Assembly: GCA_019240015.1 (NCBI GenBank)
Contig: JAFAZB010000327.1
Span: forward strand, 1 to 33,017
Direction: 5' to 3'
Length of the DNA stretch: 33,017 bases
DNA from: Solirubrobacterales bacterium
GTDB taxonomy: Bacteria > Actinomycetota > Thermoleophilia > Solirubrobacterales > Solirubrobacteraceae
Below, one piece after another: positions 846 to 11,940 of this stretch. A model generated the notes under the pieces. It ran no database searches. It was not told the DNA's origin and saw only the letters and a program-made list of their open reading frames with translations. The position numbers were made by a program, and so were the translations under genes. Positions within the stretch are counted from its first letter, which is position 1. Each line of letters begins with the position of its first letter.

Positions 846-852
846 TTTGAAT

Positions 853-871
853 CGAGGACGATCTGTCCTCG
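853..871 (+). promoter_or_regulatory. hairpin ahead of IS3 orfA
   Basis: CGAGGAC and GTCCTCG form a perfect 7-base-pair stem around the loop GATCT, just inside the left IS end and about 20 bases before the orfA ATG. Structures at this place in other insertion sequences are known to block transposase expression from transcripts entering from outside. That role here is an inference. Confidence 0.4.
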
Positions 872-891
872 GGACAGGAGACCCTCCGCGG

Positions 892-1194
892 ATGTCAAGA
901 CCCCGGAAGTACCCAGATGAGCTGATCCAGCGTGGTGTGCGGCTGGCCTTGGAGTCCGGCCGGCCGATCTCGCACGTGGCGCGGGATCTCGGGATGCATC
1001 CCGAGACGTTGCGCAAGCGTGTGCGCCAGGCCGAGGCCGATAGTGGCTTGCGGCCTGATCTGCCGACCAGCGAGGAGCGCGAGGAGATCAAGCAGTTGCG
1101 CAAGGAGAACTTCGAGCTCCGCCGCGCGAACGAGATCCTGAAGGCCGCGTCGGTGTTTTTTGCGACCGAGCTCGACGCAGACCGTCCGAGGTGA
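892..1194 (+). CDS. IS3-family transposase OrfA (helix-turn-helix subunit)
   Basis: This 100-residue protein binds the IS ends and is the N-terminal part of the OrfAB fusion transposase. An HTH_Tnp_1-type helix-turn-helix spans roughly residues 5 to 50 ('HVARDLGMHPETLRKRV'). A leucine-zipper-like coiled coil follows ('LRKENFELRRANEILK') and ends in the usual KAAS block. The ATG at 892 was preferred over the TTG at 847 because it starts the conserved SRPRKY segment and has a GGAG about 11 bases upstream. It overlaps orfB by 4 bases in the -1 phase. A run of six T at 1156-1161, in frame as TTT TTT, is the likely slip site, since the orfB frame has no stop between that run and its GTG. Confidence 0.9.
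   Translation: MSRPRKYPDELIQRGVRLALESGRPISHVARDLGMHPETLRKRVRQAEADSGLRPDLPTSEEREEIKQLRKENFELRRANEILKAASVFFATELDADRPR
1156..1161 (+). promoter_or_regulatory. probable -1 programmed frameshift site of the IS3 transposase
   Basis: Six consecutive T sit as two Phe codons near the end of orfA. A tRNA slipping back one base on the second TTT re-pairs perfectly and enters the orfB frame, which is open from there on. IS3-family elements generally make their active transposase by such a -1 shift. No obvious stimulatory structure was identified. Confidence 0.55.
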
Positions 1195-2075
1195 GCGTGT
1201 TCGTCGATGAGCATCGTGATCGCTTCGGCGTCGAGCCGATCTGCCGGACTCTGGGCGTGTCGGCGTCCGCCTACTATCACCGCCGCTGCGGCGCCCGCTC
1301 GCAGCGTCAGCTCGAGGACGAGCGAGTGCTCGCGGTGATCCGCAGCACGCACAAGAAGAACTACGAGGCCTATGGGTACCGCCGGACTTGGAAGGCACTG
1401 CTGCGGGCGGGTGAGCGGGTCCCGCGCTGCCAGGTGCAGCGGCTGATGCGCTCCCACGGCATCCAGGGGGCCAAGCGTCGCGGCAAGTCGTGGCGCACGA
1501 CCAAGCCCGACCCGAACGCCCACCGGCGACCCGACTTGGTGCAACGGAACTTCACCGCTGATGAGCCCAACCGCCTCTGGGTCGGCGACCTGTCGTATCT
1601 GCGCTGTTGGGAGGGCGTCGTCTACTTCGCGTTCATCATCGACGTGTTCAGCCGCCGCGTGGTCGGCTGGCAGCTCGCTTCGCACATGCGTACCGACCTG
1701 GTCCTCGACGCGCTCAGAATGGCGCTCGGCACCCGCGAGCACGGCGCCGACTTCCGGCTGGTCGCACACTCAGATATGGGCAGTCAATACACGTCGGGCG
1801 ACTACACCCAAGTGCTCGACGACCACCGGGTGCTCGCCTCCGTCGGATCGGTCGGCGACGCCTACGACAACGCGCTGGCCGAGAGCTTCGTCGACAGCTT
1901 CAAGACCGAGCTGATCTCCGACCGCGTCTGGCAAACCAGATCCCAACTCGAGCTCGCCGTCGTCGAATACATCGCCTGGTTTAACCACGACCGCCTGCAC
2001 GAAGCCCTCGGCGACATCCCGCCGATCGAGTTCGAGACCCTCGCCGCTCTACGGGTTCAGAGCATGGCTCGATGA
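1191..2075 (+). CDS. IS3-family transposase OrfB (DDE integrase-fold subunit)
   Basis: This 294-residue protein is the catalytic part of the transposase, carrying a retroviral-integrase-like rve domain. An HTH_21-like region ('YEAYGYRRTWKALL') precedes the core. The catalytic residues are visible: first Asp in 'LWVGDLSYL', second Asp in 'VAHSDMGSQYTSGDY', and Glu in 'ALAESFVDSFKTELI', giving the DDE triad with the IS3 spacing. The end 'WFNHDRLHEALGDIPP' is typical of the family. Length is normal and no stop or frameshift is seen, so the copy looks competent. Translation may start at the GTG at 1191 but the functional product is more likely the OrfAB frameshift fusion. Confidence 0.92.
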   Translation: MSVFVDEHRDRFGVEPICRTLGVSASAYYHRRCGARSQRQLEDERVLAVIRSTHKKNYEAYGYRRTWKALLRAGERVPRCQVQRLMRSHGIQGAKRRGKSWRTTKPDPNAHRRPDLVQRNFTADEPNRLWVGDLSYLRCWEGVVYFAFIIDVFSRRVVGWQLASHMRTDLVLDALRMALGTREHGADFRLVAHSDMGSQYTSGDYTQVLDDHRVLASVGSVGDAYDNALAESFVDSFKTELISDRVWQTRSQLELAVVEYIAWFNHDRLHEALGDIPPIEFETLAALRVQSMAR

Positions 2076-2473: not shown

Positions 2474-3079
2474 GTGATGCCGACCAGACGGCCGTGGCTG
2501 CGATTTGCGCGGGTGAGCGGACTCGCCGCGGGGGTGGCGATGTTCTGGTGCGTTCTTGTGCTGCTCGCACACGCCGCTGGTGGCTGGCTGGCGTGTGGGT
2601 TTGATACGTCCGACTGTGCGACCACCACCGCCAAGACATTCGTCTACCAAGGGCAGCTGCGCTACCCCAACGCTTCGTTTGACGTCACAGGCCCGGGCGC
2701 CTACCGGGTCGGCGGGTTTCGCACGGACAGCCAAGGTCGCTACTGCATCGTCTGGACCCCCGACGGCGCTGGCTTCACTCTCCGGGGGAACCCAAACTAC
2801 GTGATCGGGACCACCGGCACGGGTCAACGGCTTCACGGCCACCCACCCGCAGGCTGCCAATACGGCAACGGAGGCGTGCTCTGGGACCGTTCCAAGGACC
2901 TGACCAGCAGCCCTCAATACCTGTCGGTGGTCATCCTCGACCTAGCGACGATGGGCCTGCTCGCAGTCGGGATCGTCCGCGGAAGGCGCTATCCCGGTGG
3001 AGAGATACGAGCCATCGGGCTGGCGCTGACCGCTGCAAGCACCGCACTTCCACTGATCTTGTGGTGGAGCCAGCTCTAG
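2474..3079 (+). CDS. membrane-anchored hypothetical protein with extracytoplasmic domain
   Basis: I do not recognise a family. The 201 residues start with a basic stretch and a membrane segment at about 14-36 ('LAAGVAMFWCVLVLLAHAAGG'). An extracytoplasmic domain with four Cys follows, including 'CGFDTSDC', and the segment 'YPNASFDVTGPGAYRVGGFRTDSQGRYCIVW' has the look of a carboxypeptidase-regulatory-like beta-sandwich. Two further membrane segments lie near 145-165 and 177-197. The start is GTG 2474 or the adjacent ATG 2477. It is cargo of the putative integrated element and has no clear operon partner. Function is unknown. Confidence 0.6.
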   Translation: MMPTRRPWLRFARVSGLAAGVAMFWCVLVLLAHAAGGWLACGFDTSDCATTTAKTFVYQGQLRYPNASFDVTGPGAYRVGGFRTDSQGRYCIVWTPDGAGFTLRGNPNYVIGTTGTGQRLHGHPPAGCQYGNGGVLWDRSKDLTSSPQYLSVVILDLATMGLLAVGIVRGRRYPGGEIRAIGLALTAASTALPLILWWSQL

Positions 3080-3097
3080 CGACCTCCTGAGCCGTCG

Positions 3098-3122
3098 CGG
3101 CTGGCATCTTGGCTACCAGCCG
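3098..3122. terminator. hairpin between convergent genes
   Basis: CGGCTGG and CCAGCCG form a 7-base-pair stem with an 11-base loop, in the 94-base space between the stop codons of two convergent genes. There is no T run, so termination is only suggested by the position. Confidence 0.35.
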
Positions 3123-3173
3123 TGGGGCGATCGGGCACCAGTTGCTTTCTTGGGGCGGCCACGAGCTCAGCGG

Positions 3174-5990
3174 TCAGAACGCCGACCTGGCTCGCCGTCG
3201 ACGTGGTGCCGGCAGTGTTTGACGTTGTAGAGCAACGGGTTTGATCTTCTTCCCCCTTAGCACCAGCCACACGATGGGTTCGCCGTGCGGTCCGCGGGAA
3301 ACGCGTATCACCGCATGTCCGCGCAACTGTCTGGAAATCAGAAACGTCGCGGTGATGAGCTTCCGGCCATTGACCGCTCGAACGAGCAGCTGGGTGTGAC
3401 GGGGGATGACCCCACTGATGATGGCTAGCGCGCCAGGGTGGAGCGGGGCCCCAAGCAATTGGGCCAGGCCAGGTGCGGTTGCTGCCTTGCGTCGTGTGCT
3501 AGGCAAGGTAATGGTAAAAGACCCGCGCGAGCTCAGGCGACGCGTGCGAACAGCGTTTTGCATCGGTGTCGGGTCGCACGCAGCAGCAACAACCCCTGCC
3601 CCAAACCAGCTTGAGCACGCCAACGGCGCCGGGCCGGACGCCCTTCGGCGCAGTTGTGGACAGTCGGCACCTGAACAGGAAAGATTACCGCCGGTCTGAC
3701 TCCATGGAGCATAGTAATGCCCTGCATGGTCTGCGCCGCAATCGCCGGCGGCCGCAGGGGGAGGCGCAGCCGGCCCGCATGGAGACCCCGACGGCGTGCC
3801 GGGCTCAGGGGTCTCCCCCCAGGCGCCAGGCCAGTCAGTCCAGTTCTCTGGGCCGCTGGTCCAAAGATTTCCTTCACCGGCAGTCGCCGGGAGGGGGATC
3901 AGCGCACTCGCCTGCTGATTGTTTCCCCATAGGGCGCCGCCATCGTTCGGATTGTCGTTCAGTGCCGCGCTATCTGGCTGCGCGTAGTTCGCGTGCGACC
4001 CTGCGGCGGGGAACACGTCCACGTTGAGCCCGCTCGCGAGCGGCTGGCTACTGGTGGAGCATGTCCCCGGGGTGGAGATACCTAGCCCGCAGTCGAGCCC
4101 GGCAGGCAGGTAGCTGTCCCATGACCCATGGTCTGAGAGCTCAACATACGCGATCGCGTTACCCGTGGTAGCCGGGGCAACGGTGATCCCTTCCCAATCG
4201 CCAGCATGATTGCCCACATCGCCCAGCGCCTGGTTGTACCTGTAGTAGATCCAATAATCGATGTACGTGTAACCACCGGGGGATGGCCCCACCAAATGAT
4301 AATAGATAGCCGATGCTGGCCCAGTATCGCAGTCATGTAGGGGATAATTGTCGACGTCTGTCTGATGGCATGCTGGATTGGGTGATACATAGGAGTCCGG
4401 GTCTGACGCACCATCGTGGTTGATACTGATGTAGCTATCAGTCGTAGGGTGCTGCTGCAGGCTGGAGTCCCCCATCAGGGCCACGCAACCCGTGGTCGGT
4501 GAGCAAAGCTCGTTCCAGTTCCTCCCCGTCGCCGGGTCGCGCTCGTTCAGAAAATCTTCAACGTTGAGCGGCCGCCATTTTTCTGAGCTATCAAAGTTAA
4601 GGTATGGCCTGAATTGCGCGGCCAAGGCGGCAGCGTTGACGCCTGTGTCGGTAGCGGTTATGTCAATGTAGCCGCTGTATTGGTCGTTTGGCGTCAGTAT
4701 GAACGTATACGTACCAGTCTGTTGTAACGTGACGTTCCCTGTCGAGCTCGAACTGCATGCGCCCCCTGTCCAGGCGGGCGAGCCGTCGGGATTGCGAAGA
4801 TCCAGGTTCTTACACCCATCGTCCCAATTGGGTTCAGTGATCGTGATGGGGTCCCCCGCGGTCGCCCAGAACGAAACGCGTGCTAGCTGCCATGGCGTGG
4901 TCTGCACCCTGACATTGCCGCCGGAGGGGGTTGGGACAACGGAGTAGTCTGCCGTCGCGGGCACGTCGAAGACCGTCATGGCGATGGTGCCAGCGTTCTG
5001 ATCTGCAGGATCGAGCCTAAGCGTGTAGGTGCCGGTCTGGCTCAACGCGATGCGCCCGGTCGATTTGGAGCTACACGCGCCGCCGCTCCAAGCCGACGTG
5101 CCGTCTGGATTGACCAGCGTCATGTTCTTGCAGCCATCCTGCCAGTTGTCTGCGTCTGCTGCGACGATCTCGCCGGTAAAGCCGGAAAAGTTCACCTGTG
5201 CCACTTGCCACGGGCTAGTTGAGATTGATGCCGCGCTCCCTGACGAGCTTGGACTCACCGTGTACAGACTGGCTGCCGGGACGTCGAACACCGTCATGGC
5301 GATCGTCCCCGAGTTCTGGTCTGTCGGATCGAGCTCGAACGTATACGTGCCGGTCTGGCTCAACGAGATGCGGCCGGAGGATTTGGAGCTACACGCGCCG
5401 CCGCTCCAAGCCGACGTGCCGTCTGGATTGACCAGCGTCATATTCTTGCAGCCATCTCGCCACGCGTCCGCGTCGACGGCCACGACCTCTCCCGAAGAGC
5501 CGGAGAAGCTCACGTCTGCGACCTGCCAGGGGGACGTCGAGACCGTTGCCGTGTCGCCAGACGCGCTCGGCACTACCGAGTAGCTGCCGGTGGTGGTCGC
5601 GTCGAAGAACGTGAGGTCAATCGATCCCGTATTCTGGTCGGTGGGGACGAGCTGAAAGGTGTACGTTCCGCTCTGCTGGAGCGCGATGCGTCCGGTTGAC
5701 CGCGCGCTGCAGCCACCGCCGCTCCAGGCGGTGGATCCATCTGGATTGAGCAACGCCATGTTTTGACAACCGTCATGCCAGTTGTCGGCGTCGACAGCCA
5801 CGACCTGCCCCGCGTTCCCGGAGAAAGTGATATCGGCGACTTCGTTCGGGCTGTCCTGTGCCACATGGACCGTTGCCCCTGAGGCCGCGGGAGACACTGA
5901 GTAGGACAAAGTGTCAGCGGAGGCGGAAGACGGCGACAATGTAATCGCCACTGCTAGCACTGCGCTGATCACACACGCTATCCGTCGCAT
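3174..5990 (-). CDS. large secreted protein with four tandem beta-sandwich repeats and a Vps62-like domain
   Basis: The start is ATG 5990 (938 residues), not the upstream start of the ORF track. It has a GGGAGG ribosome site and opens a clear signal peptide, 'MRRIACVISAVLAVAITLS' with cleavage after 'ASA'. Residues about 29-456 are four repeats of about 106 residues, each with a 'DGCKNMTLVNPDG' segment, a second Cys in 'GGACSS' and a closing 'TGTYTFELDPTDQN'. They resemble PPC-type beta-sandwich modules, each probably with one disulfide. Residues about 465-750 resemble Vps62/DUF946-type domains: 'FRPYLNFDSSEKWRPL', 'YIDYWIYYRYN', 'NHAGDWEGITV', 'AGSHANYA'. The last 190 residues are basic and unassigned. 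No catalytic role is known. The middle is more AT-rich than neighbouring genes, which fits transfer on the element. Confidence 0.7.
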   Translation of the reverse strand: MRRIACVISAVLAVAITLSPSSASADTLSYSVSPAASGATVHVAQDSPNEVADITFSGNAGQVVAVDADNWHDGCQNMALLNPDGSTAWSGGGCSARSTGRIALQQSGTYTFQLVPTDQNTGSIDLTFFDATTTGSYSVVPSASGDTATVSTSPWQVADVSFSGSSGEVVAVDADAWRDGCKNMTLVNPDGTSAWSGGACSSKSSGRISLSQTGTYTFELDPTDQNSGTIAMTVFDVPAASLYTVSPSSSGSAASISTSPWQVAQVNFSGFTGEIVAADADNWQDGCKNMTLVNPDGTSAWSGGACSSKSTGRIALSQTGTYTLRLDPADQNAGTIAMTVFDVPATADYSVVPTPSGGNVRVQTTPWQLARVSFWATAGDPITITEPNWDDGCKNLDLRNPDGSPAWTGGACSSSSTGNVTLQQTGTYTFILTPNDQYSGYIDITATDTGVNAAALAAQFRPYLNFDSSEKWRPLNVEDFLNERDPATGRNWNELCSPTTGCVALMGDSSLQQHPTTDSYISINHDGASDPDSYVSPNPACHQTDVDNYPLHDCDTGPASAIYYHLVGPSPGGYTYIDYWIYYRYNQALGDVGNHAGDWEGITVAPATTGNAIAYVELSDHGSWDSYLPAGLDCGLGISTPGTCSTSSQPLASGLNVDVFPAAGSHANYAQPDSAALNDNPNDGGALWGNNQQASALIPLPATAGEGNLWTSGPENWTDWPGAWGETPEPGTPSGSPCGPAAPPPAAAGDCGADHAGHYYAPWSQTGGNLSCSGADCPQLRRRASGPAPLACSSWFGAGVVAAACDPTPMQNAVRTRRLSSRGSFTITLPSTRRKAATAPGLAQLLGAPLHPGALAIISGVIPRHTQLLVRAVNGRKLITATFLISRQLRGHAVIRVSRGPHGEPIVWLVLRGKKIKPVALQRQTLPAPRRRRARSAF
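4660..5935 (-). repeat. four in-gene tandem repeats, about 318-base period
   Basis: The four protein repeats are also visible in DNA. The two central copies are nearly identical over long stretches; for example CTACACGCGC occurs at 5071 and 5389, 318 bases apart, followed by the same sequence. The outer copies have diverged. This indicates recent internal duplication of the middle unit within an older repeat array. Confidence 0.7.
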
Positions 5991-6518
5991 GCGCGCCTCC
6001 CAACGTTTCAAATACCTGGCCCGCAGGCAGGTCCGACGTACAGGAGCATGCCCAGCATCGGTCCTGTCGTCAAGGGCGTTAGTACATAGGTCCATGCGTC
6101 TACGTAACACCACCAGCCTCGGGCTAGTCCGCGCCGCTTGTGGTCCTCAGCCGGGCCACGCCCACTTTGATTTGCGAACCCGCTTGGCTGCGGTCCCGCC
6201 AGCTAGCAGATGCTCTCGGGGCGAGGCATTCGCTGCGCCGCTACGGGCGAGGTCTGCCGGCGGCCGTGCCCTGGGTCGGCTTTGCTTCCGAGGGCTCTCT
6301 CAGGCCACGCTGGGCACGTGCTTCTGGGTCAACGGAGCAATGCGAAACGAGCGAGCTCCCGCCCTCGGATGGGTCGGACGCAGGCCGGGGGTGAAATGAG
6401 GGGCTGGCGCGTTCGTCTCGACAAGCTGTAAAGGGACCGGCCGTCGCGTTCGATTAACGACTACGCGGCGGTTAGCGCTACAGCAAATGACCCGGCTCGC
6501 AGCGCCGCGAACGTCTCG
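5991..6518. other. 528-base divergent intergenic region
   Basis: It lies between the divergent starts of the large secreted protein and the polytopic membrane protein. The ORFs called here have no homology I can recognise and lack convincing ribosome sites, apart from the GGGAGG serving the 5990 start. Promoters for both genes must lie here, but I see no clear -35/-10 pair, tRNA or strong hairpin. Confidence 0.4.
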
Positions 6519-7718
6519 ATGTATGTAACAGAACCAACGGTGGCCCTGAACTGCCCGGCACGCGCCCGTTCGAGCGGACGCGGACGGGTCCTATTCCCGA
6601 CGGTGATGGTTGCTCTCGTATTGCTGCTCGCGATCGGCTTGCACCTGAGCGGCTTCCGCGGCGGCCTCACCGTGTTCGTCGGCTTCGGGAGCCATTTCGC
6701 CGCCGCGACGCATCCGCCACCCGGAGCGCTCGTCGATACGTCGAACGGGTACGACGGCCAGTTCTTCTACCTCCAGGCTCACGATCCGTTGCTGCTACAC
6801 AGCTCGACGGTGAGCGCGTTGCGCGCCGCCGGCGAGGGGTTCCGAGTCCAGCGCGTCGCCTATCCGGCGCTTGCGTTTCTGCTGGCCGGCGGTCGGTTCA
6901 GCGCAATCCCGTTCGCGCTGCTGGCGGTCAACCTCATAGTGGTGCTCGCCCTCACTGCCGGGTTTGCGATCTATGCCCGTCGCCGCGGCTGGTCGACCTG
7001 GTGGGCGGTCGCGATCGCGCTGATGCCCGGCATGCTGCTACCCGTCTTGCGCGATCTGAGTGATCCGCTGGCCGCGGCCAGCATGCTGGCCGCGGTGCTG
7101 ATGTGGCGCAGTGGGCAAAGATGGCCTGCCGCCTTGGCGCTGAGCGTCGCGGTGCTCGCGCGGGAGGTAATGATGGTCGTGGTCCTTGCACTGGCAGCCG
7201 AGGCCGCCGTCCGAGCCTGGAGGCAGCGCGCGATCCCCGGCGCTTGGCGTAGCGCGGCGTCGCGGGCGTGGCCGGTGGTGGTCGTGCCGACGGTGATATT
7301 TGCCGGGTGGCAGGCCTACATCACGACCCGTTACGGCGGCCCGGTTGGCGGTGCGCCCCTGAGCCCTCCCCTGGTCGGCATCGTCGATGAGGTGCGACGA
7401 TCGATGCACAACAGTTGGCCGCCGTACGCGGTGTGGGACCTCGTCTACGTGCTGCTGATCCTCGCCGCGGCGGCCGCGGCACTCGCCTCGCTCAGCCGCC
7501 AGGTGACCATCACCAGCGCCGCAGCCTCCGCGCTAGCTTTGGGGGCGCTGATCCCGATGATGGGCGACGCCTGGAGCGACACCCGCCTGAGCGCGCCGCT
7601 GTTCGCCGTCCTGCTCGTCGACGGCCTGCAACGGCGACACCGCAGCTCCGTGCTGATCAGCACAATCGCTGCGGCAACGACGATCCTGATCCCGTTCTCC
7701 ATCCCCGGCGCCTTCTAG
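6519..7718 (+). CDS. polytopic membrane protein, AZOBR_p60025-like (cell-surface glycopolymer type)
   Basis: The 399 residues contain roughly eight to ten hydrophobic segments from residue 28 onward. The N-terminal extracytoplasmic loop 'GYDGQFFYLQAHDPLLL' and the following 'RVQRVAYPALAFLLAGG' match the signature I associate with the AZOBR_p60025 family of polyprenol-dependent glycosyltransferase-like proteins (GT-C fold). These are thought to add sugars to envelope polymers. That assignment rests on motif memory and the substrate is unknown. The ATG at 6519 has no strong ribosome site. A GTG at 6606, just before the first membrane segment, is an alternative. An 11-base-pair hairpin lies 62 bases downstream. 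Confidence 0.6.
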   Translation: MYVTEPTVALNCPARARSSGRGRVLFPTVMVALVLLLAIGLHLSGFRGGLTVFVGFGSHFAAATHPPPGALVDTSNGYDGQFFYLQAHDPLLLHSSTVSALRAAGEGFRVQRVAYPALAFLLAGGRFSAIPFALLAVNLIVVLALTAGFAIYARRRGWSTWWAVAIALMPGMLLPVLRDLSDPLAAASMLAAVLMWRSGQRWPAALALSVAVLAREVMMVVVLALAAEAAVRAWRQRAIPGAWRSAASRAWPVVVVPTVIFAGWQAYITTRYGGPVGGAPLSPPLVGIVDEVRRSMHNSWPPYAVWDLVYVLLILAAAAAALASLSRQVTITSAAASALALGALIPMMGDAWSDTRLSAPLFAVLLVDGLQRRHRSSVLISTIAAATTILIPFSIPGAF

Positions 7719-7812: not shown

Positions 7813-8069
7813 CGCGACGTCCCCAGACTGCAGGGCAGCACCACTGCTTCTAGGTCAGGCCCGGCGCCGAGAGCTAACTGCGCTCCGACACGGCCTGCGG
7901 CGCATCCGACGACGATCCTTGGTCGAACGAAGCAGTGGACCTCGCAGGCTGCACAGGCGGCGTAGTGCGCACTCAAGGGCGGATCCTTGGAGACCCGCGC
8001 TGGGGTTCAAGCGACCGCCCCGAGGCGAAACCGGGCACAGCTCGAGCGATAAGTTCAGCCAGCAGTCGA

Positions 8070-8350
8070 GGCCGTGTGGCGCCGGGATGCGGCTGAGCCG
8101 GGCTGACAGCCGGCCTGCGGCGTCGTGCTGTGGCACGTGGTGCACGTAGATCATGTCGTCGCGATATCGGCGTGAACCATGTATGCCTTCACGTCCGAGG
8201 ACGGCCAGGGTGCCGAACGTAAGGCGCAGATCGTGAAAACGAAGGTGCGCGATGCCAGCTGCCCTAAGCGCCTTGTAATAGCGGGCCGGCGGTTCGGGGG
8301 TGGCGGTCACGGCACTCGACGTCTCGTTTTCCCGGTCGAAGTGGTCAGCG
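8070..8350 (-). pseudogene. decayed C-terminal fragment of a phage-type tyrosine integrase
   Basis: On the minus strand a frame reads 'RYYKALRAAGIAHLRFHDLRLTFGTLAV' and then 'MIYVHHVPQHDAAGRL', a clear match to the end of the catalytic domain of actinobacterial integrases. The HxLRH box has become HDLRL, losing one conserved His, and the roughly 20 residues that normally contain 'MGHADIQTT' are replaced by a shorter unrelated stretch. The Tyr in 'MIYVHH' remains. No N-terminal domain exists upstream, because the intact integrase and a tRNA remnant begin there. The frame continues as non-homologous sequence to 7855. It is the remains of an earlier integration module, different from the intact enzyme next door. 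Confidence 0.75.
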
Positions 8351-8386: not shown

Positions 8387-8434
8387 GGTGAAGGATCGGA
8401 ATCGAACCCACGACCGTCTGGACCAGAATCAGAG
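8387..8434 (-). other. tRNA-Gln(CTG)-like 3' half, probable attachment-site remnant
   Basis: The minus strand reads TCTGA-TTCTGGT-CCAGA, an anticodon arm with CTG in the anticodon place. It continues CGGTC, a T arm with GTGGG-TTCGATT, and an acceptor strand ending CCTTCACC. The anticodon stem pairs at 4 of 5 positions and the T stem at 4 of 5 (one G-G mismatch). No D arm or 5' acceptor strand (it should be GTGAAGG) lies at the expected distance, so only the 3' half is present. The TGA stop of the intact integrase is inside the anticodon stem. tRNA 3' halves are standard attB cores for integrases, so this is best read as one end of an integrated element. Confidence 0.7.
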
Positions 8435-9652
8435 TGGCGACTCGCTGGCGTCCGCAATCGCCCTCCCAACCGACAGCGGCGTGAAGACTTCCTGGATCCA
8501 TGCCGCGTGCAGGTCGTTCGGTGCGAAGTGCGCGTAGATCGCTGTCGTCGCTGGATCGGAGTGGCCGAGCCATCCCTGCAGCGTTCGCATCGAGACGCGA
8601 GGATCGCGCGCCATCATCGTCCCAAACGTGTGGCGGAGGTCGTGGAAGCGAACCCGGCGCACGTGAGCACGATGCAGAGCGAGCTGAAATCGCTTCGATA
8701 CGGCGGATCCGTCGAGCGGGAGTCCTGTTCCCCGAGGATGGGTGAATACTGGGGCGTCCTCGGCCTGGTACGGCGTAACCTCCCAAAGCCGTTGCAACTC
8801 TCCGGCAACACGATCTGCCAGCGGAACGTCGCGGCGAGAGCTAGCTGACTTGGGGGTGTCCTCCTTCCCGCCGACGAACGTGCGAGCCACCCTGATTTTC
8901 CGCGCCTCCCAGTCGACATCCTTCCACCGCAGGCCGAGGAGCTCACCTCGGCGCAAGCCGGTCATTGCCGCCGTCAGCACCAGGGTCCGCTCGACATAGC
9001 CAAGCGGATCGTCTGGCATCTCGCGCAACACCTTCTCGAGCTCCTCGAGAGTCAGGAAACAGAGCTCGTCCGGCTCGCTGCGCGCCTTGCGCGGCTTGTC
9101 GTAATCGGCGACCGGATTCTCGGCGAGCCAGCCCCTCCGCTTCGCGGTGGTGAGCATCGCGCCAAGTAGCCCCAAAACGTTTCGACGCGACTGCGGTTTC
9201 AGTCCGGCTTCTCGGAGAGCTCGATCCAGAGCGGCAACGTCGTTGGTTGTGATCCGGTCGACTGGGAGCGCCCCGAAATACGGCACCAGGTGCGCGTCGA
9301 TGAGCGACCGATATCCCCGGACGGTCGAGCGCTTGAGGCCGGCGTTCTGCTTTATCTCGAGATGCGCTTCCACCACGTCCGAGATCGTCCTGCGGTCGCC
9401 GCCGGCCGTTGTCGGCCGGACGTCCGCACCGATCAGACGCCGCAACTCGGCTTCGGCTTGAGTCCGGGTCAGGCCCTGGCGCGTGCCGCGGGGGCGGACC
9501 ATGCCGAGCCGACGCATGATCTGGTGACCGCCAGCAGCTCGCCACTTCCCGTAATAGACGCCGTCGCGAACGATGATCGAGCCGGTGCCACGGCGACGGC
9601 GATTCGGCTTTCGAGACCGGGTGTTGGACACTGACGAGACCTCCGGGCGCAT
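8429..9652 (-). CDS. int: site-specific tyrosine recombinase (integrase), intact
   Basis: The 407-residue enzyme has the usual order: an N-terminal basic arm-binding segment ('GTGSIIVRDGVYYGKW'), a SAM-like core-binding domain ('LKRSTVRGYRSLIDAHLVPYFG') and a catalytic domain. The catalytic residues are all visible: Arg in 'TGLRRGELLGLRW', Lys in 'PKSASSRRDVPL', His and Arg in 'HDLRHTFGT', His in 'GWLGHSDPATT', and the nucleophile Tyr in 'AIYAHF'. It inserts and excises an element at att sites. The start is ATG 9652; a GTG at 9631 with GGAGG about 9 bases upstream is an equally good candidate. Its last codons run into the tRNA-Gln-like remnant, the int-att arrangement seen in many actinobacterial integrative elements. 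No xis gene was found beside it. Confidence 0.93.
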   Translation of the reverse strand: MRPEVSSVSNTRSRKPNRRRRGTGSIIVRDGVYYGKWRAAGGHQIMRRLGMVRPRGTRQGLTRTQAEAELRRLIGADVRPTTAGGDRRTISDVVEAHLEIKQNAGLKRSTVRGYRSLIDAHLVPYFGALPVDRITTNDVAALDRALREAGLKPQSRRNVLGLLGAMLTTAKRRGWLAENPVADYDKPRKARSEPDELCFLTLEELEKVLREMPDDPLGYVERTLVLTAAMTGLRRGELLGLRWKDVDWEARKIRVARTFVGGKEDTPKSASSRRDVPLADRVAGELQRLWEVTPYQAEDAPVFTHPRGTGLPLDGSAVSKRFQLALHRAHVRRVRFHDLRHTFGTMMARDPRVSMRTLQGWLGHSDPATTAIYAHFAPNDLHAAWIQEVFTPLSVGRAIADASESPL

Positions 9653-9783
9653 CGTTCCGGCGAACCAACGGTTGCCTTGCTACCAACGATGCTACCAAAC
9701 TGAGCAAAACTCAGGCGATCTCTATGCAGCTTGTCGCCTTTATTTACAGGCTCATCCGAGTCAGAAGATCCTCTGCCATCATT

Positions 9784-9825
9784 CTACGGAACCGAAGGTC
9801 GGGAGTTCGAATCTCTCCGGGCGCG
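9784..9825 (+). other. tRNA-Arg(ACG)-like 3' half, probable att site and element boundary
   Basis: The plus strand reads CTACGGA (anticodon loop with ACG), ACCGA, AGGTC, a T arm GGGAG-TTCGAAT-CTCTC and an acceptor strand CGGGCGC with discriminator G. Five of five T-stem positions pair, one of them G-T. The 5' acceptor (expected GCGCCCG), the D arm and a pairing anticodon 5' strand are missing upstream. It is therefore the 3' half from the anticodon loop on, the typical crossover segment duplicated by integration. With this orientation the intact tRNA-Arg should lie left of the window, and the element should span from there to here. Confidence 0.75.
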
Positions 9826-10847: not shown

Positions 10848-11051
10848 TTCTGCGACCCCGACTCTACGGTCAACCGGTCATCCCGACTAGAGCCAGTTGT
10901 GATGGGCGACCACAGCTGGAGCACTCCTCGGCGCGCCAGCGCGTCTTCGGTGTGACGTGGCACAACGACCTGGTCGGAGCGTCGAGAGCCGGCGTCGTGG
11001 AGCGCTGGAGCGGGCGGGTGCGATGATTTCTTTCCGACAGTCTCTTTCCCA

Positions 11052-11654
11052 ATGACAAAGACATCCGCTCACCTCTCCATCTCCCTCGACGGCTACATCG
11101 CTGGGCCGAGACAGGATCGTGAGAACCCGATCGGTGTCGGCGGCCTGCAGCTGCACCAGTGGCACCTGGCTGAGCCGCTGCACGAGGGAGACGCCCGCTC
11201 CCGAGAGCACCTGGCCATGAAACGTGGTGCCTACGTGATGGGCCGGAACATGTTTGGCCCGATCCGCGGCGAGTGGGACGAGGAATGGCGGGGGTGGTGG
11301 GGCGACGAGCCGCCCTACCATGCGCCCGTGTTCGTGCTCACGCACCACGACCACGAGCCGATCGAACTGGAGGGCGGTACGACGTTCCGCTTCGTCACCG
11401 ACGGCTTCGACGCCGCCTACGCGCAAGCGGTGGCCGCCGCGGGCGACCGCGAGGTCCTGATCGCGGGCGGCGCTTCGACCGTGCGCCAGGCGTTTGCAGC
11501 GCGCGTGATCGACGAGCTCGTGCTCGACGTCGCACCGGTGCTACTCGGCGACGGCGAAGCGCTATTCCAGGGCGTCGAAGATCCCGGGCTGGAGCCAGTC
11601 GAGGTGATCCACTCCCCGAAGGCGACACATATCACCTACCGCGTGGGCCGTTGA
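11052..11654 (+). CDS. dihydrofolate-reductase-fold protein (RibD C-terminal family)
   Basis: The 200-residue protein matches the RibD_C/DHFR-like reductases common in actinobacteria. It has an N-terminal 'SISLDGYIAGP' (first strand and substrate loop), 'AYVMGRNMFGP', and the NADPH-binding 'DREVLIAGGASTVRQAF', then 'IDELVLDVAPVLLGDGEALF'. These enzymes reduce pteridine- or pyrimidine-like substrates with NADPH; the real substrate of this stand-alone group is unknown. The ATG at 11052 lacks a clear ribosome site, so translation may be leaderless. It is divergent from the SRPBCC gene. Confidence 0.85.
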   Translation: MTKTSAHLSISLDGYIAGPRQDRENPIGVGGLQLHQWHLAEPLHEGDARSREHLAMKRGAYVMGRNMFGPIRGEWDEEWRGWWGDEPPYHAPVFVLTHHDHEPIELEGGTTFRFVTDGFDAAYAQAVAAAGDREVLIAGGASTVRQAFAARVIDELVLDVAPVLLGDGEALFQGVEDPGLEPVEVIHSPKATHITYRVGR

Positions 11655-11940
11655 GCGCTGCCGCTCCCGGCGGTCCACCAAGCACCGAACTACCCATCGC
11701 CTGTTCGTTAACTGAGACGGATGGCGCGGAAAGGATGATGCGCTGGCAGGCGCTCGCCGACCGCCGCGCAGGCTTACTCAGGACGCGGATCACATCGCGC
11801 TGATCATCCGATCCGAGCCTGATGGCCTTGCGACGATCACGGAGCTATTCGAGGCGCGCGACCGCCGGCCCTAAGCGGCGCCGTGCTGCGCTGGGGAGCC
11901 ACTTTCTAAGCTTGTTGTGACACAGACCAAAGGAGCAGTC
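11655..11940. other. 286-base gap, possible short gene remnant
   Basis: No complete gene is seen. Near 11785-11874 one plus-strand frame ends in 'IIRSEPDGLATITELFEARD' before a stop, which reads like a protein C-terminus, but no start or family could be assigned. The last 12 bases hold the AAAGGAG ribosome site of the next gene. Confidence 0.3.

What the first reader, a model, noticed from the sequence alone, without database searches (positions are those of the whole stretch)
9784..9825. tRNA-Arg(ACG)-like 3' half marks the right border of the mobile region
A 42-base segment from the anticodon loop to the discriminator base is a well-paired tRNA-Arg 3' half, with no 5' half upstream. It ends 2 bases before the stop of an Imm-5-like chromosomal gene. 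All genes to the left look mobile (relaxase, IS, integrases, cargo) and all genes to the right look chromosomal. With this orientation the intact tRNA and the left end should lie upstream of the window.
Basis: partly seen in the sequence, partly recalled or inferred. Interest (0 to 1): 0.62.

Follow-up and report, generated by a model that had tools for sequence, protein, structure and literature searches.

The report
Island border in tRNA-Arg gene
The 42-base piece is the cut-off second half of an arginine tRNA gene, left where a mobile DNA element with its own integrase and transfer genes inserted into that gene; this is a well-known way for bacterial islands to insert, here in a little-studied genus where the same gene is a frequent landing site.

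Summary
Bases 9784-9825 (43 bases counting 9783) are identical to positions 32-74 of the intact tRNA-Arg(ACG) of 12 same-genus genomes, and no 5' half precedes them (10/31 identity). The window's genome (540 contigs, 89% complete) has no second copy of this 3' half, but its contig C197 stops inside a tRNA-Arg(ACG) 5' half (...TCGGTCTACGGAAC|), where such a repeat could break an assembly.

A tyrosine integrase (8429-9652, minus) lies 130 bp left of the fragment. Closed relative G012 has intact tRNA-Arg(ACG), HTH, coupling protein, relaxase remnant, cargo, integrase(-), then the same 3' half 14.65 kb on. G006 has HTH, coupling protein, relaxase, integrase(-), 3' half. The window's genome shows this order in two pieces: contig C170 (HTH, coupling protein, relaxase N-terminus) and the window (relaxase C-terminus to 3' half). 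So this is the right end (attR) of an integrative, mobilizable-type element.

Eight of 21 genomes with the 3' half carry an extra copy: a hotspot. Related integrases sit beside tRNA-His, -Pro and -Met 3' halves cut at the same place. Not shown: an empty site, physical linkage to the left end, an undisturbed right junction. Ordinary; low interest.

The parts
9783..9825 (+). displaced 3' half of tRNA-Arg(ACG), positions 32-74 (anticodon loop to discriminator base): right attachment site attR
   Evidence: 43/43 identity to intact tRNA of relatives, 10/31 before it
8429..9652 (-). tyrosine integrase (Phage_integrase with SAM-like and central domains), start 130 bp from the fragment
   Evidence: Pfam 94 bits, PHROG integrase 257 bits
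1..801 (+). C-terminal (helicase) part of a MobF/TraA-type relaxase, cut by the contig start; N-terminal part probably on own contig C170
   Evidence: TIGR02768 TraA_Ti match below cut-off; collinear with whole relaxase genes in G145, G012, G007, G006
847..2075 (+). IS3-family insertion sequence, orfA and orfB
   Evidence: HTH_Tnp_1, HTH_21, rve
2474..7718 (.). cargo: small membrane-like protein, 979-aa secreted repeat protein (-), glycopolymer-related membrane protein (+)
7855..8310 (-). decayed C-terminal remnant of a second integrase
   Evidence: no library match, but 45% over 62 aa to the integrase region of L170
9827..10384 (-). Imm5-like gene, first gene outside the element
   Evidence: PF21805, 115 bits; homologues at 72-75% in the genus

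Best explanation
The left 9.8 kb of the window is the right end of an integrative element of mobilizable type (excisionase-like HTH, type IV coupling protein, MobF relaxase, cargo, tyrosine integrase) that inserted by site-specific recombination into the anticodon-loop part of the tRNA-Arg(ACG) gene. The element's attP carries a copy of the tRNA 3' half, so insertion rebuilds an intact tRNA at the left end and pushes the original 3' half to the right end, where it is seen at 9783-9825. Shown: identity of the fragment, absence of its 5' half, the adjacent full-length integrase, the 5' half with a contig break at the same point in the same genome, and the same anatomy in relatives. Inferred: that the C197 tRNA is the left end of this very element, that C170 is its missing middle, and that this integrase catalysed the event.
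For: 43/43 match from tRNA position 32 on. Integrase next to it. Own contig C197 ends in the tRNA-Arg(ACG) 5' half at ...CTACGGAAC. G012, one contig: tRNA-Arg, HTH, T4CP, relaxase remnant, integrase(-), second 3' half at 14.65 kb. G015: pair 6.25 kb apart with integrase. G006: T4CP, relaxase, integrase(-), 3' half. Own C170 carries HTH, T4CP and TrwC N-terminus; only one TrwC in the genome. 14 of 29 related integrases have a tRNA or its 3' half within about 0.5 kb of their start.
Against: The own genome has no second 3' half and no complete tRNA-Arg(ACG), so the left end is unseen. No empty site found; Imm5-like genes of relatives are not beside tRNA-Arg. No terminator follows the fragment. 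The tRNA-Arg integrases of G006, G012 and G015 are only 30-32% identical to this one, and its closer homologues use other tRNAs.
Confidence: 0.92

Rival explanations
1. The fragment is a true displaced 3' half, but the right junction was rearranged: the sequence right of 9826 is not the original flank of tRNA-Arg but another island or a chromosomal segment joined later by deletion or tandem insertion at the hotspot.
For: No terminator hairpin after the fragment (z 0.23), while one follows the displaced fragment in G006, G015 and, more weakly, G019. Block 10994-11672 is 94% identical to G010, where it lies about 0.5 kb from a degenerate tRNA-Arg 3' half. No relative has Imm5 next to tRNA-Arg.
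Against: Most right-hand genes have genus-typical identity and operon order; flanks of tRNA-Arg are not conserved in the genus anyway.
Confidence: 0.3
2. A relic: the fragment and integrase are remains of a decayed element that no longer moves, perhaps with several elements nested at the site.
For: Second integrase remnant at 7855-8310 and an IS3 element next to the relaxase.
Against: The integrase is full length with all domains and the repeat is still perfect; the C170 modules have long open frames.
Confidence: 0.25
3. The contig is an assembly chimera that joins an element end to an unrelated flank through the shared tRNA repeat.
For: Fragmented assembly; C197 ends in the same repeat.
Against: A misjoin through the 3' half would still require a second element end carrying this half, so the attachment site reading would stand; right-hand genes fit the genus.
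Confidence: 0.06

Closest known systems
tRNA-targeted genomic islands as catalogued in Islander (PMC4383910), 3' fragment type, anticodon attachment class 'A'
   Same: Displaced 3' tRNA fragment, tyrosine integrase inside the element, crossover at the anticodon loop. Islander lists 3760 islands with 3' fragments and 2083 with anticodon-centred sites.
   Different: Left end and intact tRNA are on another contig, so the island cannot be delimited. Genus and order differ from any island named here.
Integrative mobilizable or conjugative elements with MobF (TrwC/TraA) relaxase and type IV coupling protein
   Same: HTH_17 gene, T4SS coupling protein, TrwC relaxase and integrase in this order, here and in G006 and G012.
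   Different: No VirB4-type ATPase above cut-off in the own genome; self-transfer not shown. oriT not sought.
Actinomycete integrative elements of the pSAM2 kind (AICE), from memory
   Same: Insertion into a tRNA gene by a tyrosine integrase with an excisionase-like gene.
   Different: Those move double-stranded DNA by an FtsK-like protein; the modules here are relaxase and coupling protein. A lead from memory, not tested.

Membership tests
tRNA-targeted genomic island (Islander definition) | Displaced end fragment of a tRNA gene | tested here: met
   43/43 identity, no 5' half
tRNA-targeted genomic island (Islander definition) | Cognate tRNA gene in the same replicon, same orientation, upstream of a 3' fragment | tested here: inconclusive
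   Own 5' half on contig C197 ends inside the repeat; linkage not resolved. Met in relatives G012 and G015
tRNA-targeted genomic island (Islander definition) | Tyrosine integrase gene inside the element | tested here: met
   8429-9652, Phage_integrase 94 bits
tRNA-targeted genomic island (Islander definition) | Element absent from relatives at a site otherwise continuous (empty site) | tested here: inconclusive
   Flanks of tRNA-Arg not conserved in the genus; no relative joins tRNA-Arg to Imm5
Integrative mobilizable element | Relaxase plus integrase | tested here: met
   Relaxase C-terminus in window, N-terminus on C170, gap about 1 kb by G145; the joining of the two contigs is inferred
Integrative conjugative element | Own type IV secretion apparatus (VirB4-type ATPase) | tested here: inconclusive
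   PF19044 only below cut-off in an 89% complete genome
Actinomycete AICE (pSAM2-like) | FtsK/TraB-type double-strand DNA transfer and replication protein | not tested
   Not searched; the modules seen are of relaxase/coupling protein type

The most novel reading that the evidence does not exclude
An integrase family spread through this order switches between tRNA-Arg, -His, -Pro and -Met while always using the anticodon part of the gene and usually keeping the displaced 3' half next to the integrase, carried by HTH / coupling protein / MobF relaxase elements not yet described in this lineage.
Probability: 0.4. Interest if true: 0.3.

Novelty: new member of a known kind. Interest (0 to 1): 0.17.

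Why it matters
It gives an exact right border for an island in a poorly studied lineage, shows that tRNA-Arg(ACG) is a repeated landing site in that genus (8 of 21 genomes with the 3' half carry an extra copy), and supplies related integrases with different tRNA targets, useful for studying how target choice shifts. The mechanism itself is textbook.

Tried and rejected
Second full copy of the 42-mer in the own genome: none. Complete tRNA-Arg(ACG) among the 35 own tRNAs: none, only Arg-TCT, -CCG and -CCT. Imm5-like gene next to tRNA-Arg in relatives: no. Conserved gene downstream of tRNA-Arg in the genus: none except about 0.5 kb shared by G012 and G021. Ferritin pair of the right flank lies 47 kb from tRNA-Arg in G016, but in the opposite relative orientation, so not taken as synteny. 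Close integrase relatives among named genomes: only distant Clostridia hits. End overlaps between C151, C170 and C197: none. Rfam on the fragment: nothing. Published account of such elements in Solirubrobacterales (a guess at the lineage): nothing relevant in the library. Considered and rejected: chance resemblance or a split tRNA gene; 43 identical bases, ordinary complete tRNA-Arg(ACG) genes in relatives and a normal 5' half on C197 rule both out.

Full report
Observation. Bases 9783-9825 of the window are identical to positions 32-74 of tRNA-Arg(ACG) as found complete in 12 same-genus genomes (43/43), and the 31 bases before them are not (10/31). ARAGORN finds no tRNA in the window. The Imm5-like gene's stop codon lies one base beyond.

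The missing 5' half. In the window's own genome (540 contigs, 3.15 Mb, 89% complete) the 42-mer occurs once and no complete tRNA-Arg(ACG) exists among the 35 tRNAs found. A pattern for the 5' half finds it once, at 4278-4316 of contig C197, which is 4318 bases long and ends ...GCGTCGGTCTACGGAAC. Such a break is expected if the 3' half occurs twice, or if element-carrying and empty chromosomes were mixed; the chance that some contig end falls in a given 42 bases is about 1.4%. Relatives keep tRNA-Ser and tRNA-Arg(ACG) as neighbours, as on C197, so C197 is the normal locus.

Anatomy in relatives. In the single-contig genome G012 an intact tRNA-Arg(ACG) is followed, 14.65 kb later, by a second 3' half in the same orientation. 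Between them lie a regulator, an HTH gene, a coupling protein, a relaxase remnant, cargo and an integrase on the opposite strand next to the second 3' half. G015 has the pair 6.25 kb apart with an integrase at the same place. G006 has, on one contig, regulator, HTH, coupling protein, relaxase, integrase on the minus strand, then a tRNA-Arg 3' half. The window's own genome reproduces this order in two pieces: C170 (regulator, HTH, coupling protein, TrwC relaxase N-terminus running off the contig end) and the window (relaxase C-terminus, IS3, cargo, integrase, 3' half). It holds one TrwC gene. In G145 the two relaxase parts are about 1.0 kb apart in one gene. The integrases of G006, G012 and G015 are only 30-32% identical to the window's.

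Hotspot and integrase family. Of 28 genus genomes searched, 21 have the 3' half and eight of these carry a copy beyond the normal one (G000, G006, G010, G012, G015, G019, G024, G145); for G000 the normal gene is the truncated C197 copy. Sequence downstream of tRNA-Arg is almost never shared between genomes. Among 29 integrase homologues from the order (about 40-48% identical), 14 have a tRNA or its 3' half within about 0.5 kb of the integrase start: 12 fragments beginning at tRNA position 25-33 and two whole genes, of tRNA-His(GTG), -Pro(GGG) or -Met(CAT). Five more have a match on the other side. The window's integrase thus belongs to a family that uses the anticodon part of tRNA genes, with the tRNA differing between members.

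Right side. Right-hand genes have homologues in the genus at about 70-76% DNA identity, often with operon order kept (Mod genes, sigma/anti-sigma/TatA/TatC, ferritin pair), which fits resident genes. G+C is 64.8% left of the fragment and 69.2% right of it; other own contigs are mostly 68-72%. Two facts call for caution. Block 10994-11672 (RibD-C-type reductase) is 94% identical to G010, where it lies about 0.5 kb from a degenerate tRNA-Arg 3' half. And no terminator hairpin follows the fragment, whereas one follows the displaced fragment in G006, G015 and, more weakly, G019. The right junction may therefore have been altered since insertion. No relative shows the empty site.

Mechanism. Integrase-mediated recombination between attP (with a copy of the tRNA 3' half) and the anticodon part of tRNA-Arg(ACG) restores the tRNA at the left and leaves the old 3' half at the right. 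The principle and its anticodon-loop class are described in Islander (PMC4383910); islands split between contigs are discussed in PMC9580842. Membership as a tRNA-targeted island is met on fragment and integrase; linkage to the tRNA and the empty site are inconclusive here, though linkage is met in G012 and G015. Mobilization genes are present; self-transfer is unproven.

Verdict. A real, correctly read attachment site of an ordinary tRNA-targeting, mobilizable-type element. New member of a known kind, low interest.

Noticed in passing
7855-8310 (-): Decayed C-terminal remnant of a second integrase, 45% over 62 aa to the integrase region of L170; suggests an older or nested element at the site.
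   Followed up: partly
10994-11672 and L099 8271-8955: RibD-C-type reductase block 94% identical in DNA between the window and G010, far above the usual 70-76%; in both genomes it lies within about 1.2 kb of a tRNA-Arg 3' half, but on opposite sides of it.
   Followed up: partly
L178 (own contig C170, 5545 bases): HTH_17 gene, type IV coupling protein and TrwC relaxase N-terminus running off the right contig end: probable missing middle of the element.
   Followed up: yes
L089 4079-4179 (G031): A second tRNA-Arg 3' half only 59 bases after the intact tRNA-Arg(ACG), with no room for an element: looks like the scar of a lost island.
   Followed up: no
L115-L141: Homologous integrases beside 3' halves of tRNA-His(GTG), -Pro(GGG) and -Met(CAT), all cut near the anticodon loop.
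   Followed up: partly
L170 and L075 (G019 contig C175): About 58 kb separate the intact tRNA-Arg(ACG) from a second 3' half on one contig: probably a much larger element at the same site.
   Followed up: no
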